This document shows, piece after piece, positions 1-64,000 of a DNA stretch of 64,000 nt. The notes beneath the pieces are model-generated. The model made no database searches and was not told where the DNA came from. It saw nothing but the letters and a program-made list of their open reading frames with translations. The stretch comes from Tomocerus qinae (Eukaryota; Arthropoda; Collembola; Entomobryomorpha; Tomoceridae): the NCBI GenBank assembly GCA_020055645.1, contig JAECZT010000019.1, positions 1 through 64,000 of the forward strand, written 5' to 3'. The position numbers and the translations under genes are program-made. Within the stretch, counting starts at the first letter, position 1, and every line of letters starts with the position of its first letter.

Positions 1-2092
1 AGATATTATTGTAAATTATATATATAAACGAAGTCTTTCGATTATTAGAAATATAATTATGATTTTTACGCAGTATATAAAATTTTTAATAATTTGCCTA
101 TTAACATTTAAATTTGGAACGTCCTCTGCGAAAAGAATAATAGTCAGATAGAAGTATTTTACAATGTGAATACTTCTGTATTATATACTATAACACGGAC
201 TGTCCATAAATGACAATAGTAGAAGCCAGGAAAAACGTCTTTGTTTAAGTATCATTAAGTCAGAACCGAACGACAATATATTACTGGTTACGTTGAATAA
301 TGATTAAAGCATTCTCATTTATATCTGCAATTTCGGTTTACAATTAATAAACTTGAATCTTTGCTGCGAAAAGAATTAATAGTAATTATCAGTTTAGCAT
401 TGCCTTTAAAAAATTAAATTTCACGCTTTGAAAGCACTAACTAATTCAAAGAACTACCACCAAGTGTGAATTGTGAACACGAAACCTTGGTAAATAAATT
501 ATTCATATTTTAAAGAATTAAAATTTCCGGTTTTAACGGGTAATAACTGTTTTTTTCAAATAACCTGAAAAATTATATTTTAAAAAATACAATAAGAAAT
601 GCCATTACGCATTAATTATACTTTTGTGGTAGACAGATATTATTGTAAATTATATAAACGAAGTCTTTCGATTATTAGAAATATAATTATGATTTTTACA
701 GAGTATCTAAAACTGTTTTTAATTTGCCTATAAACATTTAAATTTGGAACGTCCTCTGCGAAAAGAATAACAGAGTCAGATAAAAGCGTTTTACAATAAT
801 AATACTTCAGTATTATATACTATTATATGAACTGTTCAAAAATGACAATAGTAGAAGCTATAAAAAAGGTCTTTGTTTAAGAACTATAAGGTCTGAACCG
901 AACGACAATATATTACTGGTTACGTTGAATAATGATTAAAGTATTCTCATTTATATCTGCAATTTCGGTTTACAATTAATACACTTGAATCTTTACTGCG
1001 AAAAGAATTAATAGTATTTATCAGTGTAGCATTGCCTTTTAAAAATTAAATTTTACGCTTTGAAAGCACTAACTAATTCAAAGAACTACCACCAAGAGTG
1101 AATTGTGAACACGAAACCTTGGTAAATAAATTATTCATATTTTAAAGAATTAAAATTTCCGGTTTTAACGGGTAATAACTGTTTTTTCAAATAACCTGAA
1201 AAATTCTATTTTAAAAAATACAATAAGAATTGCCATTACGCATTAATTATACTTTTGTGGTACACAGATATTATTGTAAATTATATAAACGAAGTCTTTC
1301 GATTATTAGAAATATAATTATGATTTTTACAGAGTATCTAAAACTGTTTTTAATTTGCCTATAAACATTTAAATTTGGAACGTCCCCTGCGAAAAGAATA
1401 ATAGAGTCAGATAAAAGCGTTTTACAATAATAATACTTCAGTATTATATACTATTATATGAACTGTTCAAAAATGACAATAGTAGAAGCTATAAAAAAGG
1501 TCTTTGTTTAAGAACCATAAGGTCTGAACCGAACGACAATATATTAATGGTTACGTTGAATAATGATTAAAGTATTCTCATTTATATCTGCAATTTCGGT
1601 TTACAATTAATACACTTAAATCTTTACTGCGAAAAGAATTAATAGTATTTATCGGTGTAGCATTGCCTTTTAAAAATTAAATTTTACGCTTTGAAAGCAC
1701 TAACTAATTCAAAGAACTACCACCAAGAGTGAATTGTGAACATGAAACCTTGGTAAATAAATTATTCACATTTTAAAGAATTAAAATTTCCGGTTTTAAT
1801 GGGTAATAACTGTTTTTTTCAAATAACCTGAAAAATTCTATTTTAAAAAATACAATAAGAAATGCCATTACGCATTAATTCTACTTTTGTGGTAGACAGA
1901 TATTATTGTAAATTATATAAACGAAGTCTTTCGATTATTAGAAATATAATTATGATTTTTACACAGTATATAAAATTTTCTATCATTTGTCTATAAACAT
2001 TTAAATTTGAAACGTCCTTTGCGAAAAAAATAATAGTCAGATAGAAGTATTTTACAATGTGAATACTTCTGTATTATATACTATAACACGGA
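1..2092 (-). repeat. 630-bp satellite array, minus orientation
   Basis: About 3.3 tandem monomers of the 630-bp satellite, reading as the reverse complement of the array that starts at 2093. It matches 60121-62212 at a constant offset of 60,120 bp with only scattered substitutions and small indels, for example an extra TATA near position 20. No gene is seen. The orientation flips at its right end. Confidence 0.95.
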
Positions 2093-2104
2093 TTAATAAT
2101 AATT
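2086..2104. other. Head-to-head satellite inversion junction, copy 1
   Basis: The minus-orientation monomer breaks off after ACACGGA (ends 2092). After a few bases (TTAAT) the plus-orientation monomer begins at AATAATTTATTTACC. The same break with the same joining bases is present at 62206-62224. It is an inversion breakpoint inside the satellite, not an insertion. Confidence 0.9.
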
Positions 2105-2423
2105 TATTTACCAAGGTTTCGTGTTCACAATTCACACTTGGTGGTAGTTCTTTGAATTAGTTAGTGCTTTCAAAGCGTGAAATTTAATTTTTTAAAGGCA
2201 ATGCTAAACTGATAATTACTATTAATTCTTTTCGCAGCAAAGATTCAAGTTTATTAATTGTAAACCGAAATTGCAGATATAAATGAGAATACTTTAATCA
2301 TTATTCAACGTAACCAGTATTATATTGTCGTTCGGTTCTGACTTAATGATACTTAAACAAAGACGTTTTTCCTGGCTTCTACTATTGTCATTTATGGACA
2401 GTCCGTGTTATAGTATATAATAC

Positions 2424-2451
2424 AGAAGTATTCACATTGTAAAATACTTCT
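2424..2451. other. Stem-loop carried by type A satellite monomers (one example)
   Basis: AGAAGTATT (2424-2432) pairs perfectly with AATACTTCT (2443-2451) across a 10-nt loop. The hairpin is present in the type A monomers. In type B monomers the right half changes to AAACGCTTTT, which destroys the pairing. A structural or protein-binding role is only a guess. Confidence 0.6.
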
Positions 2452-5400
2452 ATCTGACTATTATTCTTTTCGCAGAGGACGTTCCAAATTTAAATGTTAA
2501 TAGGCAAATTATTAAAAATTTTATATACTGCGTAAAAATCATAATTATATTTCTAATAATCGAAAGACTTCGTTTATATAATTTACAATAATATCTGTCT
2601 ACCACAAAAGTATAATTAATGCGTAATGGCATTTCTTATTGTATTTTTTAAAATATAATTTTTCAGGTTATTTGAAAAAAACAGTTATTACCCGTTAAAA
2701 CCGGAAATTTTAATTCTTTAAAATATGAATAATTTATTTACCAAGGTTTCGTGTTCACAATTCATATTTGGTGGTAGTTCTTTGAATTAGTTAGTGCTTT
2801 CAAAGCGTAAAATTTAATTTTTAAAAGGCAATGCTACACTGATAAATACTATTAATTCTTATCGCAGCAAAGATTCAAGTTTATTAATTGTAAACCGAAA
2901 TTGCAGATATAAATGAGAATACTTTAATCATTATTCAACGTAACCAGTATTATATTGTCGTTCGGTTCTGACTTTATGATACTTAAACAAAGACGTTTTT
3001 CCTGGCTTCTACTATTGTCATTTATGGACAGTCCGTGTTATAGTATATAATACAGAAGTATTCACATTGTAAAATACTTCTATCTGACTATTATTCTTTT
3101 CGCAGAGGACGTTCCAAATTTAAATGTTTATAGGCAAATTATAAAAAATTTTATATACTGCGTAAAAATCATAATTATATTTCTAATAATCGAAAGACTT
3201 CGTTTATATAATTTACAATAATATCTGTCTACCACAAAAGTATAATTAATGCGTAATGGCATTTCTTATTGTATTTTTTAAAATATAATTTTTCAGGTTA
3301 TTTGAAAAAAACAGTTATTACCCGTTAAAACCGGAAATTTTAATTCTTTAAAATATGAATAATTTATTTACCAAGGTTTCGTGTTCACAATTCATATTTG
3401 GTGGTAGTTCTTTGAATTAGTTAGTGCTTTCAAAGCGTAAAATTTAATTTTTAAAAGGCAATGCTACACTGATAAATACTATTAATTCTTATCGCAGTAA
3501 AGATTCAAGTGTATTAATTGTAAACCGAAATTGCAGATATAAATGAGAATGCTTTAATCATTATTCAACGTAACCAGTAATATATTGTCGTTCGGTTCTG
3601 ACTTTATGATACTTAAACAAAGACGTTTTTCCTGGCTTCTACTATTGTCATTTATGGACAGTCCGTGTTATAGTATATAATACAGAAGTATTCACATTGT
3701 AAAATACTTCTATCTGACTATTATTCTTTTCGTAGAGGGTGTTCCAAATTTAAATGTTTATAGGCAAATTAAAAACAGTTTTAGGTACTCTGTAAAAATC
3801 ATAATTATATTTCTAATAATCGAAAGACTTCGTTTATATAATTTACAATAAAATCTGTCTACCATAAAAGTATAATTAATGCGTAATGGCATTTCTTATT
3901 GTATTTTTTAAAATAGAATTTTTCAGGTTATTTGAAAAAAACAGCTATTACCCGTTAAAACCGGAAATTTTAATTCTTTAAAATATGAATAATTTATTTA
4001 CCAAGGTTTAGTGTTCACAATTCACACTTGGTGGTAGTTCTTTGAATTAGTTAGTGCTTTCAAAGCGTAAACTTTAATTTTTTAAAGGCAATGCTAAACT
4101 GATAATTACTATTAATTCTTTTCGCAGCAAAGATTCAAGTTTATTAATTGTAAACCGAAATTGCAGATATAAATGAGAATACTTTAATCATTATTCAACG
4201 TAACCAGTATTATATTGTCGTTCGGTTCTGACTTAATGATACTTAAACAAAGACGTTTTGCCTAGCTTCTACTATTGTCATTTATGGACAGTCCGTGTTA
4301 TAGTATATAATACAGAAGTATTCACATTGTGAAATACTTCTATCTGACTATTATTTTTTTCGCAAAGGACGTTCCAAATTTAGATGTTTATAGGCAAATT
4401 AAAAACAGTTTTAGGTACTCTGTAAAAATCATAATTATATTTCTAATAATCGAAAGACTTCGTTTATATAATTTACAATAATATCTGTCTACCACAAAAG
4501 TAGAATTAATGCGTAATGGCATTTCTTATTGTATTTTTTAAAATAGAATTTTTCAGGTTATTTGAAAAAAACAGTTATTACCCATTAAAACCGGAAATTT
4601 TAATTCTTTAAAATGTGAATAATTTATTTACCAAGGTTTCATGTTCACAATTCACTCTTGGTGGTAGTTCTTTGAATTAGTTAGTGCTTTCAAAGCGTAA
4701 AATTTAATTTTTAAAAGGCAATGCTACACTGATAAATACTATTAATTCTTTTCGCAGTAAAGATTTAAGTGTATTAATTGTAAACCGAAATTGCAGATAT
4801 AAATGAGAATACTTTAATCATTATTCAACGTAACCATTAATATATTGTCGTTCGGTTCAGACCTTATGGTTCTTAAACAAAGACCTTTTTTATAGCTTCT
4901 ACTATTGTCATTTTTGAACAGTTCATATAATAGTATATAATACTGAAGTATTATTATTGTAAAACGCTTTTATCTGACTCTATTATTCTTTTCGCAGGGG
5001 ACGTTCCAAATTTAAATGTTTATAGGCAAATTAAAAACAGTTTTAGATACTCTGTAAAAATCATAATTATATTTCTAATAATCGAAAGACTTCGTTTATA
5101 TAATTTACAATAATATCTGTGTACCACAAAAGTATAATTAATGCGTAATGGCAATTCTTATTGTATTTTTTAAAATAGAATTTTTCAGGTTATTTGAAAA
5201 AAAACAGTTATTACCCGTTAAAACCGGAAATTTTAATTCTTTAAAATATGAATAATTTATTTACCAAGGTTTCGTGTTCACAATTCACTCTTGGTGGTAG
5301 TTCTTTGAATTAGTTAGTGCTTTCAAAGCGTAAAATTTAATTTTTAAAAGGCAATGCTACACTGATAAATACTATTAATTCTTTTCGCAGTAAAGATTCA

Positions 5401-8400
5401 AGTGTATTAATTGTAAACCGAAATTGCAGATATAAATGAGAATACTTTAATCATTATTCAACGTAACCATTAATATATTGTCGTTCGGTTCAGACCTTAT
5501 AGTTCTTAAACAAAGACCTTTTTTATAGCTTCTACTATTGTCATTTTTGAACAGTTCATATAATAGTATATAATACTGAAGTATTATTATTGTAAAACGC
5601 TTTTATCTGACTCTGTTATTCTTTTCGCAGAGGACGTTCCAAATGTAAATGTTTATAGGCAAATGATAGAAAATTTTATATACTGTGTAAAAATCATAAT
5701 TATATTTCTAATAATCGAAAGACTTCGTTTATATAATTTACAATAAAATCTGTCTACCATAAAAGTATAATTAATGCGTAATGGCATTTCTTATTGTATT
5801 TTTTAAAATAGAATTTTTCAGGTTATTTGAAAAAAACAGCTATTACCCGTTAAAACCGGAAATTTTAATTCTTTAAAATATGAATAATTTATTTACCAAG
5901 GTTTCGTGTTCACAATTCACACTTGGTGGTAGTTCTTTGAATTAGTTAGTGCTTTCAAAGCGTGAAATTTAATTCTTTAAAGGCAATGCTAAACTGATAA
6001 TTACTATTAATTCTTTTCGCAGCAAAGATTCAAGTTTATTAATTGTAAACCGAAATTGCAGATATAAATGAGAATACTTTAATCATTATTCAACGTAACC
6101 AGTATTATATTGTCGTTCGGTTCTGACTTAATGATACTTAAACAAAGACGTTTTTCCTGGCTTCTACTATTGTCATTTATGGACAGTCCGTGTTATAGTA
6201 TATAATACAGAAGTATTCACATTGTAAAATACTTCTATCTGACTATTATTCTTTTCGCAGAGGACGTTCCAAATTTAAATGTTAATAGGCAAATTATTAA
6301 AAATTTTATATACTGCGTAAAAATCATAATTATATTTCTAATAATCGAAAGACTTCGTTTATATAATTTACAATAATATCTGTCTACCACAAAAGTATAA
6401 TTAATGCGTAATGGCATTTCTTATTGTATTTTTTAAAATATAATTTTTCAGGTTATTTGAAAAAACAGTTATTACCCGTTAAAACCGGAAATTTTAATTC
6501 TTTAAAATATGAATAATTTATTTACCAAGGTTTCGTGTTCACAATTCATATTTGGTGGTAGTTCTTTGAATTAGTTAGTGCTTTCAAAGCGTAAAATTTA
6601 ATTTTTAAAAGGCAATGCTACACTGATAAATACTATTAATTCTTATCGCAGTAAAGATTCAAGTGTATTAATTGTAAACCGAAATTGCAGATATAAATGA
6701 GAATGCTTTAATCATTATTCAACGTAACCAGTAATATATTGTCGTTCGGTTCTGACTTTATGATACTTAAACAAAGACGTTTTTCCTGGCTTCTACTATT
6801 GTCATTTATGGACAGTCCGTGTTATAGTATATAATACAGAAGTATTCACATTGTAAAATACTTCTATCTGACTATTATTCTTTTCGCAGAGGACGTTCCA
6901 AATTTAAATGTTTATAGGCAAATTATAAAAAATTTTATATACTGCATAAAAATCATAATTATATTTCTAATAATCGAAAGACTTCGTTTATATAATTTAC
7001 AATAATATCTGTCTACCACAAAAGTAAAATTAATGCGTAATGGCATTTCTTATTGTATTTTTTAAAATAGAATTTTTCAGGTTATTTGAAAAAAACAGTT
7101 ATTACCCGTTAAAACCGGAAATTTTAATTCTTTAAAATGTGAATAATTTATTTACCAAGGTTTCGTAATCACAATTCATATTTGGTGGTAGTTCTTTGAA
7201 TTAGTTAGTGCTTTCAAAGCGTAAAATTTAATTTTTAAAAGGCAATGCTACACTGATAAATACTATTAATTCTTTTCGCAGTAAAGATTCAAGTGTATTA
7301 ATTGTAAACCGAAATTGCAGATATAAATGAGAATACTTTAATCATTATTCAACGTAACCAGTAATATATTGTCGTTCGGTTCAGACCTTATAGTTCTTAA
7401 ACAAAGACCTTTTTTATAGCTTCTACTATTGTCATTTTTGAACAGTTCATATAATAGTATATAATACTGAAGTATTATTATTGTAAAACGCTTTTATCTG
7501 ACTCTGTTATTCTTTTCGCAGAGGACGTTCCAAATTTAAATGTTTATAGGCAAATTAAAAACAGTTTTAGATACTCTGTAAAAATCATAATTATATTTCT
7601 AATAATCGAAAGACTTCGTTTATATAATTTACAATAAAATCTGTCTACCATAAAAGTATAATTAATTCGTAATGACATTTCCTATTGTATTTTTTAAAAA
7701 TAGAATTTTTCAGGTTATTTGAAAAAAACAGCTATTACCCGTTAAAACCGGAAATTTTAATTCTTTAAAATATAAATAATTTATTTACCAAGGTTTCGTG
7801 TTCACAATCCACACTTGGTGGTAGTTCTTTGAATTAGTTAGTGCTTTCAAAGCGTAAAATATAATTTTTAAAAGGCAACGCTACACAGATAAATACTATT
7901 AATTCTTTTCGCAGTAAAGATTCAAGTGTATTAATTGTAAACCGAAATTGCAGAAATAAATGAGAATGCTTTAATCATTATTCAACGTAACCAGTAATAT
8001 ATTGTCGTTCGGTTCTGACTTTATGATACTTAAACAAAGACGTTTTTCCTGGCTTCTACTATTGTCATTTATGGACAGTCCGTGTTATAGTATATAATAC
8101 AGAAGTATTCACATTGTAAAATACTTCTATCTGACTATTATTCTTTTCGCAGAGGACGTTCCAAATTTAAATGTTAATAGGCAAATTATTAAAAATTTTA
8201 TATACTGCGTAAAAATCATAATTATATTTCTAATAATCGAAAGACTTCGTTTATATAATTTACAATAATATCTGTCTACCACAAAAGTATAATTAATGCG
8301 TAATGGCATTTCTTATTGTATTTTTTAAAATATAATTTTTCAGGTTATTTGAAAAAAACAGTTATTACCCGTTAAAACCGGAAATTTTAATTCTTTAAAA

Positions 8401-11400
8401 TATGAATAATTTATTTACCAAGGTTTCGTGTTCACAATTCATATTTGGTGGTAGTTCTTTGAATTAGTTAGTGCTTTCAAAGCGTAAAATTTAATTTTTA
8501 AAAGGCAATGCTACACTGATAAATACTATTAATTCTTATCGCAGTAAAGATTCAAGTGTATTAATTGTAAACCGAAATTGCAGATATAAATGAGAATGCT
8601 TTAATCATTATTCAACGTAACCAGTAATATATTGTCGTTCGGTTCTGACTTTATGATACTTAAACAAAGACGTTTTTCCTGGCTTCTACTATTGTCATTT
8701 ATGGACAGTCCGTGTTATAGTATATAATACAGAAGTATTCACATTGTGAAATACTTCTATCTGACTATTATTTTTTTCGCAAAGGACGTTTCAAATTTAA
8801 ATGTTTATAGGCAAATGATAGAAAATTTTATATACTGTGTAAAAATCATAATTATATTTCTAATAATCGAAAGACTTCGTTTATATAATTTACAATAATA
8901 TCTGTCTACCACAAAAGTAGAATTAATGCGTAATGGCATTTCTTATTGTATTTTTTAAAATAGAATTTTTCAGGTTATTTGAAAAAAACAGTTATTACCC
9001 ATTAAAACCGGAAATTTTAATTCTTTAAAATGTGAATAATTTATTTACCAAGGTTTCATGTTCACAATTCACTCTTGGTGGTAGTTCTTTGAATTAGTTA
9101 GTGCTTTCAAAGCGTAAAATTTAATTTTTAAAAGGCAATGCTACACTGATAAATACTATTAATTCTTTTCGCAGTAAAGATTTAAGTGTATTAATTGTAA
9201 ACCGAAATTGCAGATATAAATGAGAATACTTTAATCATTATTCAACGTAACCATTAATATATTGTCGTTCGGTTCAGACCTTATGGTTCTTAAACAAAGA
9301 CCTTTTTTATAGCTTCTACTATTGTCATTTTTGAACAGTTCATATAATAGTATATAATACTGAAGTATTATTATTGTAAAACGCTTTTATCTGACTCTAT
9401 TATTCTTTTCGCAGGGGACGTTCCAAATTTAAATGTTTATAGGCAAATTAAAAACAGTTTTAGATACTCTGTAAAAATCATAATTATATTTCTAATAATC
9501 GAAAGACTTCGTTTATATAATTTACAATAATATCTGTGTACCACAAAAGTATAATTAATGCGTAATGGCAATTCTTATTGTATTTTTTAAAATAGAATTT
9601 TTCAGGTTATTTGAAAAAAAAACAGTTATTACCCGTTAAAACCGGAAATTTTAATTCTTTAAAATATGAATAATTTATTTACCAAGGTTTCGTGTTCACA
9701 ATTCACTCTTGGTGGTAGTTCTTTGAATTAGTTAGTGCTTTCAAAGCGTAAAATTTAATTTTTAAAAGGCAATGCTACACTGATAAATACTATTAATTCT
9801 TTTCGCAGTAAAGATTCAAGTGTATTAATTGTAAACCGAAATTGCAGATATAAATGAGAATACTTTAATCATTATTCAACGTAACCATTAATATATTGTC
9901 GTTCGGTTCAGACCTTATAGTTCTTAAACAAAGACCTTTTTTATAGCTTCTACTATTGTCATTTTTGAACAGTTCATATAATAGTATATAATACTGAAGT
10001 ATTATTATTGTAAAACGCTTTTATCTGACTCTGTTATTCTTTTCGCAGAGGACGTTCCAAATGTAAATGTTTATAGGCAAATTAAAAACAGTTTTAGATA
10101 CTCTGTAAAAATCATAATTATATTTCTAATAATCGAAAGACTTCGTTTATATAATTTACAATAAAATCTGTCTACCATAAAAGTATAATTAATGCGTAAT
10201 GGCATTTCTTATTGTATTTTTTAAAATAGAATTTTTCAGGTTATTTGAAAAAAACAGCTATTACCCGTTAAAACCGGAAATTTTAATTCTTTAAAATATG
10301 AATAATTTATTTACCAAGGTTTCGTGTTCACAATTCACACTTGGTGGTAGTTCTTTGAATTAGTTAGTGCTTTCAAAGCGTGAAATTTAATTTTTTAAAG
10401 GCAATGCTAAACTGATAATTACTATTAATTCTTTTCGCAGCAAAGATTCAAGTTTATTAATTGTAAACCGAAATTGCAGATATAAATGAGAATACTTTAA
10501 TCATTATTCAACGTAACCAGTATTATATTGTCGTTCGGTTCTGACTTAATGATACTTAAACAAAGACGTTTTTCCTGGCTTCTACTATTGTCATTTATGG
10601 ACAGTCCGTGTTATAGTATATAATACAGAAGTATTCACATTGTAAAATACTTCTATCTGACTATTATTCTTTTCGCAGAGGACGTTCCAAATTTAAATGT
10701 TAATAGGCAAATTATTAAAAATTTTATATACTGCGTAAAAATCATAATTATATTTCTAATAATCGAAAGACTTCGTTTATATAATTTACAATAATATCTG
10801 TCTACCACAAAAGTATAATTAATGCGTAATGGCATTTCTTATTGTATTTTTTAAAATATAATTTTTCAGGTTATTTGAAAAAAACAGTTATTACCCGTTA
10901 AAACCGGAAATTTTAATTCTTTAAAATATGAATAATTTATTTACCAAGGTTTCGTGTTCACAATTCATATTTGGTGGTAGTTCTTTGAATTAGTTAGTGC
11001 TTTCAAAGCGTAAAATTTAATTTTAAAAGGCAATGCTACACTGATAAATACTATTAATTCTTATCGCAGTAAAGATTCAAGTGTATTAATTGTAAACCGA
11101 AATTGCAGATATAAATGAGAATGCTTTAATCATTATTCAACGTAACCAGTAATATATTGTCGTTCGGTTCTGACTTTATGATACTTAAACAAAGACGTTT
11201 TTCCTGGCTTCTACTATTGTCATTTATGGACAGTCCGTGTTATAGTATATAATACAGAAGTATTCACATTGTAAAATACTTCTATCTGACTATTATTCTT
11301 TTCGCAGAGGACGTTCCAAATTTAAATGTTTATAGGCAAATTATAAAAAATTTTATATACTGCGTAAAAATCATAATTATATTTCTAATAATCGAAAGAC

Positions 11401-13140
11401 TTCGTTTATATAATTTACAATAATATCTGTCTACCACAAAAGTAGAATTAATGCGTAATGGCATTTCTTATTGTATTTTTTAAAATAGAATTTTTCAGGT
11501 TATTTGAAAAAAACAGTTATTACCCGTTAAAACCGGAAATTTTAATTCTTTAAAATGTGAATAATTTATTTACCAAGGTTTCGTAATCACAATTCATATT
11601 TGGTGGTAGTTCTTTGAATTAGTTAGTGCTTTCAAAGCGTAAAATTTAATTTTTAAAAGGCAATGCTACACTGATAAATACTATTAATTCTTTTCGCAGT
11701 AAAGATTCAAGTGTATTAATTGTAAACCGAAATTGCAGATATAAATGAGAATACTTTAATCATTATTCAACGTAACCAGTAATATATTGTCGTTCGGTTC
11801 AGACCTTATAGTTCTTAAACAAAGACCTTTTTTATAGCTTCTACTATTGTCATTTTTGAACAGTTCATATAATAGTATATAATACTGAAGTATTATTATT
11901 GTAAAACGCTTTTATCTGACTCTGTTATTCTTTTCGCAGAGGACGTTCCAAATTTAAATGTTTATAGGCAAATTAAAAACAGTTTTAGATACTCTGTAAA
12001 AATCATAATTATATTTCTAATAATCGAAAGACTTCGTTTATATAATTTACAATAAAATCTGTCTACCATAAAAGTATAATTAATTCGTAATGGCATTTCC
12101 TATTGTATTTTTTAAAATAGAATTTTTCAGGTTATTTGAAAAAAACAGCTATTACCCGTTAAAACCGGAAATTTTAATTCTTTAAAATATAAATAATTTA
12201 TTTACCAAGGTTTCGTGTTCACAAGCCACACTTGGTGGTAGTTCTTTGAATTAGTTAGTGCTTTCAAAGCGTAAAATATAATTTTTAAAAGGCAACGCTA
12301 CACAGATAAATACTATTAATTCTTTTCGCAGTAAAGATTCAAGTGTATTAATTGTAAACCGAAATTGCAGAAATAAATGAGAATGCTTTAATCATTATTC
12401 AACGTAACCAGTAATATATTGTCGTTCGGTTCTGACTTTATGATACTTAAACAAAGACGTTTTTCCTGGCTTCTACTATTGTCATTTATGGACAGTCCGT
12501 GTTATAGTATATAATACAGAAGTATTCACATTGTAAAATACTTCTATCTGACTATTATTCTTTTCGCAAAGGACGTTCGAAATTTAAATGTTTATAGGCA
12601 AATTATAGAAAATTTTATATACTGTGTAAAAATCATAATTATATTTCTAATAATCGAAAGACTTCGTTTATATAATTTACAATAATATCTGTCTACCACA
12701 AAAGTATAATTAATGCGTAATGGCATTTCTTATTGTATTTTTTAAAATAGAATTTTTCAGGTTATTTGAAAAAAACAGTTATTACCCGTTAAAACTGGAA
12801 ATTTTAATCCTTTAAAATGTGATAATTTATTTACCAAGGTTTCGTGTTCACAATTCACTCTTGGTGGTAGTTCTTTGAATTAGTTAGTGCTTTCAAAGCG
12901 TAAAATTTAATTTTTAAAAGGCAATGCTACACTGATAAATACTATTAATTCTTTTCGCAGTAAAGATTCAAGTGTATTAATTGTAAACCGAAATTGCGGA
13001 TATAAATGAGAATACTTTAATCATTATTCAACGTAACCAGTAATATATTGTCGTTCGGTTCAGACCTTATGGTTCTTAAACCAAGACCTTTTTTATAGCT
13101 TCTACTATTGTCATTTTTGAACAGTTCATATAATAGTATA

Positions 13141-22774: not shown

Positions 22775-22790
22775 CCTGTAAACTTGAGTT

Positions 22791-22796: not shown

Positions 22797-22886
22797 CCAG
22801 ACTTTATTTGAGCTTCCTCTTGAACTCATCTAAATATCTCTACCTTTCTTTATGCCCACTTGGCAAGCCGAACCCTTCATCCTTTA

Positions 22887-51800: not shown

Positions 51801-52819
51801 TCGAAAGAATTCGAGTAACCTCGAACGAATTCAGGTAGCCTTGAAAGGATTCGAGTAGCCTCGAAACAATTCGAATAACCTCGAAAGAATTCGAGTAACC
51901 TCAAAAGAATTCGGGTAGCTTCGAAAAAGTTCTTTGTAGCTTAAAAGTATCCGAGTAGCCGCTAAGGAATTCGAGTACCCTTAAGACACTTCGAATATCT
52001 TTGAAAGAAATCGAATAGCTTTAAAATAATTCAAGTAGCTTCGAAAGGATTCGAGTAGCCTCGAAAGAATTCGAAATGCTTCGAAGGAATTCGAGTAGCC
52101 TCGAAAGAATTTGAGTAGCTTCGAAAGAATTCCAGTACCCTAAAAAGATTTCGAGACGCCAAGAAACATTATAGTTGTCGTAGAAAGAATTCAAGTAGAC
52201 TCAAAAGAATTCTAGTAGATTCGAAATAATTCCAATAGCCTTGAACGCGTTCAAGTAGCCACGAAACAACTCTTTGTTGTTTGAAATAATCAGAGTTGCC
52301 TCGAAGGATATCGGGTACCCTCGAGACAATTTAAACATCTTTGAACAAATTCGAATAACTTCGAAAAGATTCGAGTAGCGTCGAAAGAATTCCAGTAGCC
52401 TAAACAGGCTTCGAGACACCACGAAACATTTCAGTTGTCGTAGATCGAATTCAAGTAGACTCAAAAGAATTCTAGTAGCTTCGAAATAATTAAAATAGCC
52501 TTGAACGATTTCAAGTAGCCACCAAACAGTTCTTTGTTGTTTGAAAGAATCCGAGTTGCCTCGATGGAATTCGAAAACTCTTGAGACAATTTAAATAGCT
52601 TTGAACAAATTCGAATAGCTTCGAAAAGATTCGAGTAGCCCTGAAAGAATTCTAGCAGTCTCGAAAAAATTCGTGTAATTTCGAAAGAACTCAGGTAGCC
52701 TTGGAAGGATTCGGGTGCCCTCGAAACAACTCGAGTAGACTCGAAAGAATACGAGTAACTTTGAAAAAATACGAGTGGCATCGAAAGAATTCGAGTAGCC
52801 TCGAAAGATTTCGAGTAGC
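45801..52819 (-). repeat. 20-bp minisatellite array, right arm (inverted)
   Basis: About 7.0 kb of the same 20-bp repeat in opposite orientation, roughly half the length of the left arm. Ordered variant blocks match the left arm in mirror image: 50977-52859 with 29880-31782 (start+end sums 82739, then 82759 after a one-unit shift), 49594-50665 with 33951-34983, 48205-49292 with 32867-33951, and 45814-47288 with 40672-42146 (sum 87960). The arm is thus a shuffled, shortened copy, and the 1.02-kb triplication, the solo LTR and about 2.2 kb of inner array are missing. Confidence 0.93.
49781..49973 (-). repeat. Homogeneous run of perfect 20-bp units, right arm
   Basis: Nine full identical units plus a partial one, ending where AATTCG becomes AATACG. 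It is the counterpart of the run at 34571-34770, but its flanking variant units are not identical to those of the left arm. Confidence 0.88.
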
Positions 52820-55800
52820 GTTTTTGTTTAAGTATCATAAAGTCAGAACCGAACGACAATATAATACTGGTTACGTTGAATAATGATTAAAGTATTCTCA
52901 TTTATATCTGCAATTTCGGTTTACAATTAATACACTTGAATCTTTGCTGCGAAAAGAATTAATAGTAATTATCAGTGTAGCATTGCCTTTTAAAAATTAA
53001 ATTTTACGTTTTGAAAGCACTAACTAATTCAAAGAACTACACCTTGGTAAATAAATTATTCATATTTTAAAGAATTAAAATTTCCGGTTTTAACGGGTAA
53101 TAACTGTTTTTTTCAAATAACCTGAAAAATTCCATTTTAAAAAATACAATAAGAAATGCCATTACGCATTAATTATACTTTTAAGGTAGATAGATTTTAT
53201 TGTAAATTATATAAACGAAGTCTTTCGATTATTAGAAATATAATTATGATTTTTACAGAGTATCTAAAACTGTTTTTAATTTGCCTATAAACATTTAAAT
53301 TTGGAACGTCCTCTGCGAAAAGAATAATAGAGTCGGATAAAAGCGTTTTACAATAATAATACTTCAGTATTATATACTATTATATGAACTGTTCAAAAAT
53401 GACAATAGTAGAAGCTATAAAAAAGGTCTTGGTTTAAGAACCATAAGGTCTGAACCGAACGACAATATATTACTGGTTACGTTGAATAATGATTAAAGTA
53501 TTTTCATTTATATCTGCAATTTCGGTTTACAATTAATACACTTGAATCTTTACTGCGAAAAGAATTAATAGTAATTATCAGTTTAGCATTGCCTTTAAAA
53601 AATTAAATTTTACGCTTTGAAAGCACTAACTAATTCAAAGAACTACCACCAAGTGTGAATTGTGAACACGAAACCTTGGTAAATAAATTATTCATATTTT
53701 AAAGAATTAAAATTTCCGGTTTTAACGGGTAATAGCTGTTTTTTCAAATGATCTGAAAAATTCTATTTTAAAAAATACAATAAGAAATGCCATTGCGCAT
53801 TAATTATACTTTTATGGTATATAGATTTTATTGTAAATTATATAAACGAAGTCTTTCGATTATTAGAAATATAATTATGATTTTTACAGAGTATCTAAAA
53901 CCGTTTTTAATTTGCCTATAAACATTTTAATTTGGAACGTCCTCTGCGAAAAGAATAATAGAGTCGGATAAAAGCGTTTTACAATAATAATACTTCAGTA
54001 TTATATACTATTATATGAACTGTTCAAAAATGACAATAGTAGAAGCTATAAAAAGGTCTTTGTTTAAGAACAATAAGGTCTGAACCGAACGACAATATAT
54101 TACTGGTTACGTTGAATAATGATTAAAGTATTCTCATTTATATCTGCAATTTCGGTTTACAATTAATACACTTGAATCTTTACTGCGAAAAGAATTAATA
54201 GTATTTATCAGTGTAGCATTGCCTTTTAAAAATTAAAGTTTACGCTTTGAAAGCACTAACTAATTCAAAGAACTACCACCAAGAGTGAATTGTGAACACG
54301 AAACCTTGGTAAATAAATTATTCATATTTTAAAGAATTAAAATTTCCGGTTTTAACGGGTAATAACTGTTTTTTTTCAAATAACCTGAAAAATTCTATTT
54401 TAAAAAATACAATAAGAATTGCCATTACGCATTAATTATACTTTTGTGGTACACAGATATTATTGTAAATTATATAAACGAAGTCTTTCGATTATTAGAA
54501 ATATAATTATGATTTTTACAGAGTATCTAAAACTGTTTTTAATTTGCCTATAAACATTTAAATTTGGAACGTCCCCTGCGAAAAGAATAATAGAGTCAGA
54601 TAAAAGCGTTTTACAATAATAATACTTCAGTATTATATACTATTATATGAACTGTTCAAAAATGACAATAGTAGAAGCTATAAAAAAGGTCTTTGTTTAA
54701 GAACCATAAGGTCTGAACCGAACGACAATATATTAATGGTTACGTTGAATAATGATTAAAGTATTCTCATTTATATCTGCAATTTCGGTTTACAATTAAT
54801 ACACTTAAATCTTTACTGCGAAAAGAATTAATAGTATTTATCAGTGTAGCATTGCCTTTTAAAAATTAAATTTTACGCTTTGAAAGCACTAACTAATTCA
54901 AAGAACTACCACCAAGAGTGAATTGTGAACATGAAACCTTGGTAAATAAATTATTCACATTTTAAAGAATTAAAATTTCCGGTTTTAATGGGTAATAACT
55001 GTTTTTTTCAAATAACCTGAAAAATTCTATTTTAAAAAATACAATAAGAAATGCCATTACGCATTAATTCTACTTTTGTGGTAGACAGATATTATTGTAA
55101 ATTATATAAACGAAGTCTTTCGATTATTAGAAATATAATTATGATTTTTACACAGTATATAAAATTTTCTATCATTTGCCTATAAACATTTAAATTTGAA
55201 ACGTCCTTTGCGAAAAAATAATAGTCAGATAGAAGTATTTTCACAATGTGAATACTTCTGTATTATATACTATAACACGGACTGTCCATAAATGACAATA
55301 GTAGAAGCTAGGCAAAACGTCTTTGTTTAAGTATCATTAAGTCAGAACCGAACGACAATATAATACTGGTTACGTTGAATAATGATTAAAGTATTCTCAT
55401 TTATATCTGCAATTTCGGTTTACAATTAATAAACTTGAATCTTTGCTGCGAAAAGAATTAATAGTAATTATCAGTTTAGCATTGCCTTTAAAATTAAAGT
55501 TTACGCTTTGAAAGCACTAACTAATTCAAAGAACTACCACCAAGTGTGAATTGTGAACACTAAACCTTGGTAAATAAATTATTCATATTTTAAAGAATTA
55601 AAATTTCCGGTTTTAACGGGTAATAGCTGTTTTTTTCAAATAACCTGAAAATTCTATTTTAAAAAATACAATAAGAAATGCCATTACGCATTAATTATAC
55701 TTTTATGGTAGACAGATTTTATTGTAAATTATATAAACGAAGTCTTTCGATTATTAGAAATATAATTATGATTTTTACAGAGTACCTAAAACTGTTTTTA

Positions 55801-58800
55801 ATTTGCCTATAAACATTTAAATTTGGAACACCCTCTACGAAAAGAATAATAGTCAGATAGAAGTATTTTACAATGTGAATACTTCTGTATTATATACTAT
55901 AACACGGACTGTCCATAAATGACAATAGTAGAAGCCAGGAAAAACGTCTTTGTTTAAGTATCATTAAGTCAGAACCGAACGACAATATAATACTGGTTAC
56001 GTTGAATAATGATTAAAGTATTCTCATTTATATCTGCAATTTCGGTTTACAATTAATACACTTGAATCTTTGCTGCGAAAAGAATTAATAGTAATTATCA
56101 GTGTAGCATTGCCTTTTAAAAATTAAATTTTACGCTTTGAAATCACTAACTAATTCAAAGAACTACCACCAAGAGTGAATTGTGAACACGAAACCTTGGT
56201 AAATAAATTATTCATATTTTAAAGAATTAAAATTTCCGGTTTTAACGGGTAATTACTGTTTTTTTCAAATAACCTGAAAAATTCTATTTTAAAAATACAA
56301 TAAGAAATGCCATTGCACATTAATTATACTTTTATGGTATATAGATTTTAGTGTAAATTATATAAACGAAGTCTTTCAAATATTAGAAACATAATTATGA
56401 TTTTTACAGAGTATCTAAAACTGTTTTTAAGTTGCCTATAAATATTTAAATTTGAAACGTCCTCTGCGAAAAGAATAATAGTCAGATAGAAGTATTTTAC
56501 AATGTGAATACTTCTGTATTATATACTATAACACGGACTGTCCATAAATGACAATAATAGAAGCTAGGCAAAACGTCTTTGTTTAAGTATCATAAAGTCA
56601 GAACCGAACGACAATATAATACTGGTTACGTTGAATAATGATTAAAGTATTCTCATTTATATCTGCAATTTCGGTTTACAATTAATAAACTTGAATCTTT
56701 GCTGCGAAAAGAATTAGTAGTAATTATCAGTGTAGCATTGCCTTTTAAAAATTAAATTTTACGTTTTGAAAGCACTAACTAATTCAAAGAACTACCACCA
56801 AGAGTGAATTGTGAACACGAAACCTTGGTAAATAAATTATTCATATTTTAAAGAATTAAAATTTCCGGTTTTAACGGGTAATAGCTGTTTTTTCAAATAA
56901 CCTGAAAAATTCTATTTTAAAAAATACAATAAGAAATGCCATTGCGCATTAATTATACTTTTATGGTATATAGATTTTATTGTAAATTATATAAACGAAG
57001 TCTTTCGATTATTAGAAATATAATTATGATTTTTATACAGTATATAAAATTTTTTATAATTTGCCTATAAACATTTAAATTTGAAACGTCCCTCTGCGAA
57101 AAGAATAATAGTCAGATAGAAGTATTTTACAATGTGAATACTTCTGTATTATATACTATAACACGGACTGTCCATAAATGACAATAGTAGAAGCTAGGCA
57201 AAACGTCTCTTGTTTAAGTATCATTAAGTCAGAACCGAACGACAATATAATACTGGTTACGTTGAATAATGATTAAAGTATTCTCATTTATATCTGCAAT
57301 TTCGGTTTACAATTAATAAACTTGAATCTTTGCTGCGAAAAGAATTAATAGTAATTATCAGTTTAGCATTGCCTTTAAAAAATAAAATTTGACGCTTTGA
57401 AAGCACTAACTAATTCAAAGAACTACTACCAAGTGTGAATTGTGAACACGAAACCTTGGTAAATAAATTATTCATATTTTAAAGAATTAAAATTTCCGGT
57501 TTTAACGGGTAATAGCTGTTTTTTCAAATAACCTGAAAAATTCTATTTTAAAAAATACAATAAGAAATGCCATTGCGCATTAATTATACTTTTATGGTAT
57601 ATAGATTTTATTGTAAATTATATAAACGAAGTCTTTCGATTATTAGAAATATAATTATGATTTTTACAGAGTATCTAAAACTGTTTTTAATTTGCCTATA
57701 AACATTTAAATTTGGAACGTCCTCTGCGAAAAGAATAATAGAGTCGGATAAAAGCGTTTTACAATAATAATACTTCAGTATTATATACTATTATATGAAC
57801 TGTTCAAAAATGACAATAGTAGAAGCTATAAAAAAGGTCTTGGTTTAAGAACCATAAGGTCTGAACCGAACGACAATATATTACTGGTTACGTTGAATAA
57901 TGATTAAAGTATTCTCATTTATATCCGCAATTTCGGTTTACAATTAATACACTTGAATCTTTACTGCGAAAAGAATTAATAGTATTTATCAGTGTAGCAT
58001 TGCCTTTTAAAAATTAAATTTTACGCTTTGAAAGCACTAACTAATTCAAAGAACTACCACCAAGAGTGAATTGTGAACATGAAACCTTGGTAAATAAATT
58101 ATTCACATTTTAAAGAATTAAAATTTCCGGTTTTAATGGGTAATAACTGTTTTTTTCAAATAACCTGAAAAATTCTATTTTAAAAAATACAATAAGAAAT
58201 GCCATTACGCATTAATTCTACTTTTGTGGTAGACAGATATTATTGTAAATTATATAAACGAAGTCTTTCGATTATTAGAAATATAATTATGATTTTTACA
58301 CAGTATATAAAATTTTCTATCATTTGCCTATAAACATTTAAATTTGAAACGTCCTTTGCGAAAAAAATAATAGTCAGATAGAAGTATTTTACAATGTGAA
58401 TACTTCTGTATTATATACTATAACACGGACTGTCCATAAATGACAATAGTAGAAGCTAGGCAAAACGTCTTTGTTTAAGTATCATTAAGTCAGAACCGAA
58501 CGACAATATAATACTGGTTACGTTGAATAATGATTAAAGTATTCTCATTTATATCTGCAATTTCGGTTTACAATTAATACACTTGAATCTTTACTGCGAA
58601 AAGAATTAATAGTATTTATCTGTGTAGCGTTGCCTTTTAAAAATTATATTTTACGCTTTGAAAGCACTAACTAATTCAAAGAACTACCACCAAGTGTGAA
58701 TTGTGAACACGAAACCTTGGTAAATAAATTATTTATATTTAAAAGAATTAAAATTTCCGGTTTTAACGGGTAATAGCTGTTTTTTTCAAATAACCTGAAA

Positions 58801-61800
58801 AATTCTATTTTAAAAAATACAATAGGAAATGCCATTACGAATTAATTATACTTTTATGGTAGACAGATTTTATTGTAAATTATATAAACGAAGTCTTTCG
58901 ATTATTAGAAATATAATTATGATTTTTACAGAGTATCTAAAACTGTTTTTAATTTGCCTATAAACATTTAAATTTGGAACGTCCTCTGCGAAAAGAATAA
59001 CAGAGTCAGATAAAAGCGTTTTACAATAATAATACTTCAGTATTATATACTATTATATGAACTGTTCAATAATGACAATAGTAGAAGCTATAAAAAAGGT
59101 CTTTGTTTAAGAACTATAAGGTCTGAACCGAACGACAATATATTACTGGTTACGTTGAATAATGATTAAAGTATTCTCATTTATATCTGCAATTTCGGTT
59201 TACAATTAATACACTTGAATCTTTACTGCGAAAAGAATTAATAGTATTTATCAGTGTAGCATTGCCTTTTAAAAATTAAATTTTACGCTTTGAAAGCACT
59301 AACTAATTCAAAGAACTACCACCAAATATGAATTGTGATTACGAAACCTTGGTAAATAAATTATTCACATTTTAAAGAATTAAAATTTCCGGTTTTAACG
59401 GGTAATAACTGTTTTTCAAATAACCTGAAAAATTCTATTTTAAAAAATACAATAAGAAATGCCATTACGCATTAATTCTACTTTTGTGGTAGACAGATAT
59501 TATTGTAAATTATATAAACGAAGTCTTTCGATTATTAGAAATATAATTATGATTTTTACGCAGTATATAAAATTTTTTATAATTTGCCTATAAACATTTA
59601 AATTTGGAACGTCCTCTGCGAAAAGAATAATAGTCAGATAGAAGTATTTTACAATGTGAATACTTCTGTATTATATACTATAACACGGACTGTCCATAAA
59701 TGACAATAGTAGAAGCCAGGAAAAACGTCTTTGTTTAAGTATCATAAAGTCAGAACCGAACGACAATATATTACTGGTTACGTTGAATAATGATTAAAGT
59801 ATTCTCATTTATATCTGCAATTTCGGTTTACAATTAATACACTTGAATCTTTACTGCGAAAAGAATTAATAGTATTTATCAGTGTAGCATTGCCTTTTAA
59901 AAATTAAATTTTACGCTTTGAAAGCACTAACTAATTCAAAGAACTACCACCAAATATGAATTGTGATTACGAAACCTTGGTAAATAAATTATTCACATTT
60001 TAAAGAATTAAAATTTCCGGTTTTAACGGGTAATAACTGTTTTTTTCAAATAACCTGAAAAATTCTATTTTAAAAAATACAATAAGAAATGCCATTACGC
60101 ATTAATTCTACTTTTGTGGTAGACAGATATTATTGTAAATTATATAAACGAAGTCTTTCGATTATTAGAAATATAATTATGATTTTTACGCAGTATATAA
60201 AATTTTTTATAATTTGCCTATAAACATTTAAATTTGGAACGTCCTCTGCGAAAAGAATAATAGTCAGATAGAAGTATTTTACAATGTGAATACTTCTGTA
60301 TTATATACTATAACACGGACTGTCCATAAATGACAATAGTAGAAGCCAGGAAAAACGTCTTTGTTTAAGTATCATAAAGTCAGAACCGAACGACAATATA
60401 TTACTGGTTACGTTGAATAATGATTAAAGCATTCTCATTTATATCTGCAATTTCGGTTTACAATTAATACACTTGAATCTTTACTGCGATAAGAATTAAT
60501 AGTAATTATCAGTTTAGCATTGCCTTTAAAAAATTAAATTTCACGCTTTGAAAGCACTAACTAATTTAAAGAACTACCACCAAGTGTGAATTGTGAACAC
60601 GAAACCTTGGTAAATAAATTATTCATATTTTAAAGAATTAAAATTTCCGGTTTTAACGGGTAATAGCTGTTTTTTTCAAATAACCTGAAAAATTCTATTT
60701 TAAAAAATACAATAAGAAATGCCATTACGCATTAATTATACTTTTATGGTAGACAGATTTTATTGTAAATTATATAAACGAAGTCTTTCGATTATTAGAA
60801 ATATAATTATGATTTTTACAGAGTATCTAAAACTGTTTTTAATTTGCCTATAAACATTTAAATTTGGAACGTCCTCTGCGAAAAGAATAACAGAGTCAGA
60901 TAAAAGCGTTTTACAATAATAATACTTCAGTATTATATACTATTATATGAACTGTTCAAAAATGACAATAGTAGAAGCTATAAAAAGGTCTTTGTTTAAG
61001 AACTATAAGGTCTGAACCGAACGACAATATATTACTGGTTACGTTGAATAATGATTAAAGTATTCTCATTTATATCTGCAATTTCGGTTTACAATTAATA
61101 CACTTGAATCTTTACTGCGAAAAGAATTAATAGTATTTATCAGTGTAGCATTGCCTTTTAAAAATTAAATTTTACGCTTTGAAAGCACTAACTAATTCAA
61201 AGAACTACCACCAAGAGTGAATTGTGAACACGAAACCTTGGTAAATAAATTATTCATATTTTAAAGAATTAAAATTTCCGGTTTTAACGGGTAATAACTG
61301 TTTTTTTTTCAAATAACCTGAAAAATTCTATTTTAAAAAATACAATAAGAATTGCCATTACGCATTAATTATACTTTTGTGGTACACAGATATTATTGTA
61401 AATTATATAAACGAAGTCTTTCGATTATTAGAAATATAATTATGATTTTTACAGAGTATCTAAAACTGTTTTTAATTTGCCTATAAACATTTAAATTTGG
61501 AACGTCCCCTGCGAAAAGAATAATAGAGTCAGATAAAAGCGTTTTACAATAATAATACTTCAGTATTATATACTATTATATGAACTGTTCAAAAATGACA
61601 ATAGTAGAAGCTATAAAAGGTCTTTGTTTAAGAACCATAAGGTCTGAACCGAACGACAATATATTAATGGTTACGTTGAATAATGATTAAAGTATTCTCA
61701 TTTATATCTGCAATTTCGGTTTACAATTAATACACTTAAATCTTTACTGCGAAAAGAATTAATAGTATTTATCAGTGTAGCATTGCCTTTTAAAAATTAA

Positions 61801-62212
61801 ATTTTACGCTTTGAAAGCACTAACTAATTCAAAGAACTACCACCAAGAGTGAATTGTGAACATGAAACCTTGGTAAATAAATTATTCACATTTTAAAGAA
61901 TTAAAATTTCCGGTTTTAATGGGTAATAACTGTTTTTTTCAAATAACCTGAAAAATTCTATTTTAAAAAATACAATAAGAAATGCCATTACGCATTAATT
62001 CTACTTTTGTGGAAGACAGATATTATTGTAAATTATATAAACGAAGTCTTTCGATTATTAGAAATATAATTATGATTTTTACACAGTATATAAAATTTTC
62101 TATCATTTGCCTATAAACATTTAAATTTGAAACGTCCTTTGCGAAAAAAATAATAGTCAGATAGAAGTATTTTACAATGTGAATACTTCTGTATTATATA
62201 CTATAACACGGA
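52820..62212 (-). repeat. 630-bp satellite array, minus orientation, right arm
   Basis: About 15 monomers. The junction to the 20-bp array (GCGTTTTTGTTTAAGTATC) is the reverse complement of the one at about 29917, apart from no visible change. Moving outward, the first 3.5 kb is collinear with the left arm, allowing for the hAT-like insertion there and a 26-bp deletion here near 53040. Farther out, unit-specific variants correspond to left-arm units at about 21.6 kb, 13.0 kb and 12.2 kb, so the arms differ by higher-order block gains and losses. There is no insertion or gene in this stretch. Confidence 0.93.
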
Positions 62213-62224
62213 TTAATAATAATT
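62206..62224. other. Head-to-head satellite inversion junction, copy 2
   Basis: Same sequence as the junction at 2086-2104, exactly 60,120 bp away: minus monomer to ACACGGA, then TTAAT, then plus monomer. The preceding 2.09 kb matches 1-2092 closely. Confidence 0.9.
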
Positions 62225-64000
62225 TATTTACCAAGGTTTCGTGTTCACAATTCACACTTGGTGGTAGTTCTTTGAATTAGTTAGTGCTTTCAAAGCGTGA
62301 AATTTAATTTTTTAAAGGCAATGCTAAACTGATAATTACTATTAATTCTTTTCGCAGCAATGATTCAAGTTTATTAATTGTAAACCGAAATTGCAGATAT
62401 AAATGAGAATACTTTAATCATTATTCAACGTAACCAGTATTATATTGTCGTTCGGTTCTGACTTAATGATACTTAAACAAAGACGTTTTTCCTGGCTTCT
62501 ACTATTGTCATTTATGGACAGTCCGTGTTATAGTATATAATACAGAAGTATTCACATTGTAAAATACTTCTATCTGACTATTATTCTTTTCGCAGAGGAC
62601 GTTCCAAATTTAAATGTTAATAGGCAAATTATTAAAAATTTTATATACTGCGTAAAAATCATAATTATATTTCTAATAATCGAAAGACTTCGTTTATATA
62701 ATTTACAATAATATCTGTCTACCACAAAAGTATAATTAATGCGTAATGGCATTTCTTATTGTATTTTTTAAAAATATAATTTTTCAGGTTATTTGAAAAA
62801 ACAGTTATTACCCGTTAAAACCGGAAATTTTAATTCTTTAAAATATGAATAATTTATTTACCAAGGTTTCGTGTTCACAATTCATATTTGGTGGTAGTTC
62901 TTTGAATTAGTTAGTGCTTTCAAAGCGTAAAATTTAATTTTTAAAAGGCAATGCTACATTGATAAATACTATTAATTCTTATCGCAGTAAAGATTCAAGT
63001 GTATTAATTGTAAGCCGAAATTGCAGATATAAATGAGAATGCTTTAATCATTATTCAACGTAACCAGTAATATATTGTCGTTCGGTTCTGACTTTATGAT
63101 ACTTAAACAAAGACGTTTTTCCTGGCTTCTACTATTGTCATTTATGGACAGTCCGTGTTATAGTATATAATACAGAAGTATTCACATTGTAAAATACTTC
63201 TATCTGACTATTATTCTTTTCGCAGAGGACGTTCCAAATTTAAATGTTTATAGGCAAATTATAAAAAATTTTATATACTGCGTAAAAATCATAATTATAT
63301 TTCTAATAATCGAAAGACTTCGTTTATATAATTTACAATAATATCTGTCTACCACAAAAGTAGAATTAATGCGTAATGGCATTTCTTATTGTATTTTTTA
63401 AAATAGAATTTTTCAGGTTATTTGAAAAAAACAGCTATTACCCGTTAAAACCGGAAATTTTAATTCTTTAAAATATGAATAATTTATTTACCAAGGTTTA
63501 GTGTTCACAATTCACACTTGGTGGTAGTTCTTTGAATTAGTTAGTGCTTTCAAAGCGTAAACTTTAATTTTTTAAAGGCAATGCTAAACTGATAATTACT
63601 ATTAATTCTTTTCGCAGCAAAGATTCAAGTTTATTAATTGTAAACCGAAATTGCAGATATAAATGAGAATACTTTAATCATTATTCAACGTAACCAGTAT
63701 TATATTGTCGTTCGGTTCTGACTTAATGATACTTAAACAAAGACGTTTTGCCTAGCTTCTACTATTGTCATTTATGGACAGTCCGTGTTATAGTATATAA
63801 TACAGAAGTATTCACATTGTAAAATACTTCTATCTGACTATTATTTTTTTCGCAAAGGACGTTTCAAATTTAAATGTTTATAGGCAAATGATAGAAAATT
63901 TTATATACTGTGTAAAAATCATAATTATATTTCTAATAATCGAAAGACTTCGTTTATATAATTTACAATAATATCTGTCTACCACAAAAGTAGAATTAAT
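62213..64000 (+). repeat. 630-bp satellite array, plus orientation, window end
   Basis: About 2.8 monomers. The first matches the first monomers after 2093. By 63481 the unit matches the one at 3991 (CCAAGGTTTAGTG variant) rather than 3361, so one monomer is missing relative to copy 1. The array runs off the window. Confidence 0.93.

What the first reader, a model, noticed from the sequence alone, without database searches (positions are those of the whole stretch)
1..64000. Possible 60-kb tandem macro-repeat built from an inverted satellite palindrome
The head-to-head junction ACACGGA-TTAAT-AATAATTT occurs at 2092 and again at 62212, in the same orientation, 60,120 bp apart. About 2.09 kb of near-identical sequence precedes it, and at least 1 kb of similar sequence follows. 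A specific breakpoint with filler bases is unlikely to arise twice, so one is probably a copy of the other. The simplest reading is that the unit [plus 630-mers, plus 20-mers, Penelope fragment, minus 20-mers, minus 630-mers] is tandemly repeated, giving alternating orientations along the chromosome.
Basis: partly seen in the sequence, partly recalled or inferred. Interest (0 to 1): 0.8.

Follow-up and report, generated by a model that had tools for sequence, protein, structure and literature searches.

The report
Tandemly duplicated inverted satellite array
A stretch of repeated animal DNA seems first to have folded back into a mirror-image pair and then to have been copied once more in tandem, with a piece of a jumping gene at the seam, which gives a readable history of how such arrays grow.

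Summary
The junction ACACGGA-TTAAT-AATAATTT occurs twice, at 2086 and 62206, in the same orientation, and nowhere else on either strand of the contig. The same breakpoint and filler twice imply one event that was copied.

The window is bases 1-64000 of contig C19 (144,160 bp) in a 334-Mb genome. I read the rest of the contig. It holds a second plus arm (62218-129696) with the same hAT-like insertion at the same site. It holds no third junction, no second Penelope-type fragment and no second minus arm. The plus array instead runs into another 20-bp repeat family. So the proposed 60-kb unit is not repeated to the right.

A better phase fits. The copied unit is a palindrome centred on the junction, [minus arm - junction - plus arm], and the retroelement fragment (44409-45797) lies at the single seam seen. 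The hAT insertion is in both plus arms but not in the minus arm M. This orders events: fold-back, hAT insertion, tandem duplication; a Copia-like element then inserted in one plus arm.

The contig starts 2.09 kb left of junction 1, so the left side is unresolved. The locus is a small, readable member of a known kind (satellite macro-dyads).

The parts
1..2092 (-). L: end of a minus-oriented 630-mer array, cut off by the contig start; monomer types 3-2-1-0 read outward from the junction
2086..2105 (+). Junction J1: minus monomer position 305 / TTAAT filler / plus monomer position 1
2098..29920 (+). P arm, 630-mer part, plus orientation, with three insertions
13141..13479 (.). 339-bp insert with long internal inverted repeat (84% over about 290 bp); no other copy in the contig
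22499..25704 (+). Copia-like LTR element: identical LTRs (22498-22886 and 25316-25704 match at 389/389, one flanking base included), target-site duplication ATAAA, one 759-aa frame with Pol_BBD and weak gag_pre-integrase and SH3 matches; no other copy in the contig
28631..29290 (.). hAT-like MITE with 8-bp target-site duplication TTTTATAG; same insertion in Q (contig 97159-97826), empty site in M
29920..44408 (+). P arm, 20-bp repeat family A, plus orientation
44409..45797 (-). 5'-truncated retroelement fragment (Penelope-type by recalled motifs; open frame 45024-45803 on the minus strand) at the single seam seen; 3' end at 44406-44409 as in four other copies, 2-bp microhomology (AT) at the truncated end
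45798..52819 (-). M arm, 20-bp repeat family A, inverted copy of the P/Q array
52820..62212 (-). M arm, 630-mer part, inverted and collinear with the P and Q arms; lacks the hAT-like insertion
62206..62225 (+). Junction J2, same 20-mer as J1 and identical over 200 bases around it
62218..64000 (+). Q arm, first three 630-mers (third cut by the window end); continues outside it to 98456 (630-mers), 129696 (family A), then family B to the contig end at 144160

Best explanation
The region is a satellite locus that grew in two large steps. Step 1 (inferred from anatomy): a fold-back template switch or end joining inside the plus 630-mer array made a head-to-head palindrome V = [minus arm - J - plus arm], with a 5-bp filler and about 1.6 kb of unpaired spacer at J. 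Step 2 (order shown against M): a hAT-like MITE inserted in the plus arm only. Step 3 (order shown, mechanism inferred): V was copied in tandem, giving V1 = L-J1-P and V2 = M-J2-Q. The only seam seen between them holds a 5'-truncated Penelope-type retroelement fragment. Its normal 3' end is joined to P and its truncated 5' end to M with 2 bp of microhomology, as expected if target-primed cDNA bridged two broken ends. Step 4: a Copia-like element inserted in P; it is absent from M and Q. Unequal exchange and conversion between monomers have since changed arm lengths (P 42 kb, Q 67 kb to the end of family A).
For: J is present twice in direct orientation and not inverted in the contig. M is an inverted, collinear copy of the plus arms: 15 of 15 M monomers pair in order with P (65 differences in 9,148 bp) and with Q (63 in 9,146); order scores of 28.9 and 24.3 exceed all 200 shuffles (maxima 20.3 and 18.5). 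Inverted 20-mer matches reach 950 bp exact; M read unreversed gives no exact run of 40 bp against P. P and Q are direct copies: 33 of 37 P monomers pair in order with Q (score 60.8, maximum of 200 shuffles 38.4); the 20-mer arrays share exact runs to 960 bp. The hAT-like insertion sits at the same site in P and Q with the same 8-bp duplication; M has the uninterrupted site. The P and Q hAT copies differ by 1 substitution and one 8-bp indel, while the next near-full-length genomic copy listed is 92% and one partial copy 94% (40 of 410 candidates scored). No second Penelope fragment, J or minus 630-mer occurs in 62213-144160. Of six other genomic copies of the retroelement, four start at the same 3' end and all six run on past 45803. 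At both J the first 499-503 bp of the type-0 monomer pair at 98-99% across a 1,594-bp spacer.
Against: Only V2 is nearly whole; V1 is cut by the contig start, so whether L continues like M is unknown. The last 527 bp of P before the retroelement (43882-44408) have no match above 94.8% as a whole; its two parts match separate places at 98-99%, so the end of P is a mosaic and the right boundary of the copied unit is unclear. A 70-mer ending at 44408 recurs at 14 other places, so no single empty site in Q can be named. Nearest-neighbour monomers often lie in other arms or positions, so array exchange blurs ages; L and M differ at 24 columns, and L's outermost monomer is nearer to plus monomers than to M's. 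Some pairs are poor: up to 21 differences in P-Q, 15-16 for m58104 and 12 for m59994 against P. Fragment monomers were dropped before that count (p12822, p13480, p28353, p29298, q96881, q97834, m52819; hAT-split ones were entered as flank-joined p28353x and q96881x). At J, longer pairings in other registers exist at 93-94%, and only the first plus monomers after J fit a simple fold-back. No reads were available to check the assembly.
Confidence: 0.6

Rival explanations
1. One reading: a long tandem array of a 60-kb unit [plus 630s - plus 20s - Penelope fragment - minus 20s - minus 630s], with J the unit-to-unit joint and at least three units touched by the window.
For: J twice in direct orientation, 60,120 bp apart. 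L has the same monomer-type order 3-2-1 as M next to J. The left flank is not in the contig, so a unit there is possible.
Against: The third unit (Q) has no Penelope fragment, no minus 630-mer and no J in 82 kb. Its family-A array runs 31 kb and then changes to another 20-bp family near to the contig end. In the capped genome searches all 630-mer matches listed are on this contig, save one 74-bp piece on C11, so further units were not seen; that does not prove they are absent from the organism.
Confidence: 0.2
2. One fold-back (sister-chromatid fusion) at the Penelope fragment produced M from P, with no tandem copying.
For: P and M are inverted copies around the fragment, with a 3.6-kb spacer and closely matching 20-mers next to it.
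Against: Such a fold-back of [L-J1-P] would put the junction at the far end in inverted orientation; J2 is in direct orientation and no inverted J exists in the contig. M lacks the hAT insertion that P carries.
Confidence: 0.05
3. Assembly artefact: the assembler walked one palindrome twice or joined two haplotypes of one palindrome into a single contig.
For: The contig is short (144 kb), apparently all satellite with a few insertions, and begins 2.09 kb from J1. Long near-identical inverted repeats are hard to assemble (general knowledge).
Against: The copies differ: L and M at 24 columns, P and Q by a 3.2-kb LTR element, a 339-bp insert and many monomer gains. The seam holds retroelement sequence with the family's usual 3' end, present once in the contig. 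There is no N in the contig. A join of two haplotypes at a false seam is not excluded.
Confidence: 0.15

Closest known systems
Macro-dyad symmetries of satellite arrays in Tribolium beetles (PMC13081366; passages seen)
   Same: Two intermingled satellite families; arrays change orientation to give palindromes of tens of kilobases; the inversion sites have conserved, many times repeated sequences
   Different: There they are thousands of inversion sites over megabase putative (peri)centromeric regions; here one 144-kb contig with two copies of one junction, and transposon insertions that order the events. Sequence relation to the Tribolium satellites was not tested
Higher-order repeats and inverted blocks in centromeric or Y heterochromatin satellites (recalled; related titles seen in the listing)
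   Same: Amplification of multi-monomer blocks with local inversions
   Different: The copied block here is itself a palindrome, and its seam carries a retroelement fragment
Retrotransposon insertion with rearrangement at the target (recalled from LINE-1 work; PMC6278893, passage seen, calls it conceivable that Penelope invasions raised transposon activity and so inversions in the virilis group)
   Same: Usual 3' end, truncated 5' end, microhomology, DNA of different orientation on the two sides
   Different: No target-site duplication can be shown, and a later break inside an older insertion would look the same

Membership tests
Satellite macro-dyad symmetry | Tandem arrays that switch orientation to give long inverted subarrays | tested here: met
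Satellite macro-dyad symmetry | Same inversion-site sequence recurs | tested here: met
   J identical at two places; only two copies seen
Satellite macro-dyad symmetry | Megabase-scale abundance at (peri)centromeres, as in Tribolium | tested here: not met
   630-mers listed on one 144-kb contig plus one 74-bp piece (capped searches, lower bounds); chromosomal position unknown; I take this as a trait of the Tribolium case rather than of the kind
   absent from 62213-144160; left side not in the contig
Penelope-like element | Reverse transcriptase in the element | tested here: met
   684-aa frame of copy L019 matches RVT_1, E 1.9e-08, 34.7 bits over the cut-off of 29.6; the fragment itself had no Pfam match
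Penelope-like element | Penelope-type RT clade, GIY-YIG endonuclease or terminal hammerhead | tested here: inconclusive
   no GIY-YIG match in that frame; no Rfam match at gathering scores in the window; RT phylogeny not done; the name rests on recalled RT motifs
hAT-type MITE | 8-bp target-site duplication, terminal inverted repeats, many copies | tested here: met
   TTTTATAG duplication and CAGGGC/GCCCTG ends; many genomic copies; no transposase link tested
Copia-like LTR retrotransposon | LTR pair, target-site duplication, copia-type pol domains | tested here: met
   identical LTRs, ATAAA duplication, Pol_BBD at its cut-off, gag_pre-integrs and SH3_retrovirus below theirs; no RT match in the frame, so not autonomous as it stands (inference)

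The most novel reading that the evidence does not exclude
A retroelement cDNA, primed on a broken satellite end, bridged to a sister or neighbouring palindrome. In one event it fixed the tandem copy of a whole satellite macro-dyad. Fold-back followed by retroelement-bridged tandem copying would then be a route by which small satellites acquire the alternating orientations seen in macro-dyad arrays.
Probability: 0.25. Interest if true: 0.6.

Novelty: new member of a known kind. Interest (0 to 1): 0.35.

Why it matters
How satellite arrays come to alternate in orientation has to be inferred largely from finished, homogenised megabase arrays (general knowledge). Here the locus is small and young enough that transposon insertions and breakpoints still record the order of events: fold-back, insertion, tandem copying, insertion. 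It also corrects the phase of the repeat: the retroelement marks a seam seen once, not the middle of a repeated unit.

Tried and rejected
Rejected: chance or independent recurrence of the junction (same breakpoint and filler twice, within near-identical flanks). Rejected: simple fold-back at the Penelope fragment (J2 would be inverted). Rfam search of the window gave nothing at gathering scores. The junction 30-mer gave 0 matches in viral contigs. The Penelope fragment had no Pfam match even at E 10 and no PDB match at E 0.01. The 684-aa relative gave 26 weak PDB matches, nearly all U1A (best E 0.0054, residues 3-75), which I did not follow. COX1 was sought to learn the taxon, but I could not name the species; TTAGG arrays are many (235 forward and 296 reverse matches), which suggests an insect or other arthropod (recalled). 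Paper searches: 630-bp satellite with Penelope and inversion, 0 papers; 'macro-dyad symmetries' with satDNA, 2 papers, one of them only in its reference list. One search used a wrong plus-array start and was replaced; one search used a wrong LTR start, so LTR identity rests. Genome searches are incomplete: those for families A and B did not even list all copies on C19, so absence from their lists proves little.
Full report
WHAT WAS CHECKED. The junction ACACGGATTAATAATAATTT is present at 2086 and 62206 on the + strand only, 60,120 bp apart. The sequence before it, 1-2092 and 60125-62212, is 98.85% identical; the sequence after it, 2098-3880 and 62218-64000, is 97.5% identical. Other 630-mers in the window are 91-100% identical to the first one after J1, so the flank identity alone is not decisive; the shared breakpoint and filler are. 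In monomer coordinates the junction joins minus position 305, the filler TTAAT, and plus position 1.

WHERE IT LIES. The window is bases 1-64000 of contig C19, 144,160 bp, in a genome of 334,443,149 bases and 115 contigs. Nothing to the left of base 1 is in the contig. I fetched 64001-144160, all that was missing. The 630-mer was listed only on C19, apart from a 74-bp piece on C11. The two 20-bp families occur elsewhere as more divergent arrays: the best listed outside C19 is 80% for a family-A query and 82% over the full length, 90-92% over parts, for a family-B query. These searches score only some candidates and missed known copies on C19 itself, so their counts are lower bounds.

LAYOUT OF THE CONTIG. 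L, minus 630-mers, 1-2092. J1. P: plus 630-mers 2098-29920, then 20-mer family A 29920-44408. Retroelement fragment 44409-45797. M: family A in minus orientation 45798-52819, then minus 630-mers to 62212. J2. Q: plus 630-mers 62218-98456, then family A 98456-129696, then another 20-bp family B 129694-144135, near the contig end. Between 62213 and 144160 there is no further J, no retroelement fragment and no minus 630-mer.

M IS AN INVERTED COPY. Read backwards, 15 of 15 M monomers pair in order with P monomers (65 differences in 9,148 bp) and with Q monomers (63 in 9,146). Both order scores exceed all 200 shuffles; an earlier test with P alone exceeded all 500 shuffles. Most pairs differ by 0-7 bases; m58104 (15-16) and, against P, m59994 (12) are poor. 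Seven fragment monomers were left out. In the stretch 45798-53080 (7,283 bp, mostly 20-mers), chains of exact inverted matches cover 6,412 bp against P and 6,871 against Q under the same settings; unreversed, none (an earlier setting gave 6,441 for P). M's best long match to P starts at 42162, so the fold around the fragment leaves a 3.6-kb spacer.

P AND Q ARE DIRECT COPIES. 33 of 37 P monomers pair in order with Q, score 60.8 against a shuffle maximum of 38.4, 194 differences in 20,324 bp, with some poor pairs. From 29653 to 44408, P shares exact runs up to 960 bp with Q, and a collinear chain covers 14,002 of 14,756 bp; Q is longer, apparently through internal duplication. The strongest evidence is the hAT-like insertion. 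It sits at the same site in P (28631-29290) and Q (97159-97826) with the same duplicated TTTTATAG, while M has the uninterrupted site. The two copies differ by one substitution and one 8-bp indel; the next near-full-length genomic copy listed is 92%, and one partial copy 94%. So M was separate from the plus arm before the insertion, and P and Q separated after it, unless conversion removed or spread the element.

THE FRAGMENT MARKS A SEAM. Of six other genomic copies fetched, four begin at the same 3' end as the window fragment, within the two or three bases (CT or ACT) that the array shares with them. The other two align from further in, though L027 shows the same terminal motif just upstream. 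All six continue past the point where the window copy stops. At the truncated end the retroelement and the inverted array share two bases (AT). P on one side and M on the other are in opposite orientation, so this is not a plain insertion in an array. A 684-aa frame of copy L019 matches RVT_1 (E 1.9e-08).

READING. Two J, one seam, and no repeat of the seam to the right are what one tandem copy of a J-centred palindrome gives: V1 = L-J1-P, V2 = M-J2-Q. The order of events is fold-back at J, hAT insertion in the plus arm, tandem copying of V with the retroelement at the seam, and the Copia-like insertion in P (LTRs identical at 389 of 389 bases of the matched stretch). At both junctions the type-0 monomers pair at 98-99% over about 500 bp across a 1,594-bp spacer, though longer pairings in other registers exist at 93-94%. 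Shown: the anatomy and the hAT order. Inferred: the fold-back mechanism, the bridging by cDNA, and that L once extended like M.

WHAT DOES NOT FIT WELL. The last 527 bp of P have no match above 94.8% as a whole; two parts of it match separate places at 98-99%, so the end of P is a mosaic. L is not specially close to M beyond the junction: L and M differ at 24 columns, against 18 and 16 to the plus copy 8709-10799, and m1 is closer to plus monomers (3 differences in 500) than to m59994 (8 in 500). The right flank of J2 lacks a monomer like p3358 at the expected place: p3358 and p63478 differ at 32 of 523 positions, and p3988 and p63478 at 11 of 523. These fit ongoing exchange in the array but also limit the proof.

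KNOWN KINDS. Satellite arrays with long inverted subarrays and recurring inversion sites are described in Tribolium as macro-dyad symmetries; that paper states that they had been documented only in that genus (PMC13081366, passages seen). The present locus meets the structural description but is small, seen on one contig and unplaced. I file it as a new member of a known kind. My searches (listings only, except the passages named) did not show a described case of a tandemly copied satellite palindrome with a retroelement at its seam; they cover one open-licence library and few words, so this is weak evidence of novelty.

After the report was sent back I made and mended the statements on the end of P, the hAT and 20-mer copies elsewhere, and the closeness of the left arms.

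Noticed in passing
13141-13479: 339-bp insert in one 630-mer with an 84% inverted repeat over most of its length, with no other copy in the contig: a fold-back type element or MITE by its look.
   Followed up: partly
about 53041 (M), compared with 29653-29720 and 98189-98260: About 26 bp missing in M in the last monomer before the 20-mers, where P and Q agree: a deletion private to M among these three.
   Followed up: no
L035 (C1:36670928-36672268), four further places on C1, two on C81, one on C11: One near-full-length and several partial COX1 matches with TGA inside, mostly in the 140-Mb contig C1; probably nuclear copies of mitochondrial DNA.
   Followed up: no
genome, e.g. C1:6315544-6315648: Many short interstitial TTAGG arrays along C1 (235 forward and 296 reverse pattern matches genome-wide, overlapping registers counted; control pattern 0).
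   Followed up: no
24514-24634: A 62-bp near-repeat (88.7%) inside the Copia-like reading frame.
   Followed up: no
C61 (629-36712): Four copies of relatives of the hAT-like MITE (81-83%) on one small contig, possibly another repeat block that carries it.
   Followed up: no
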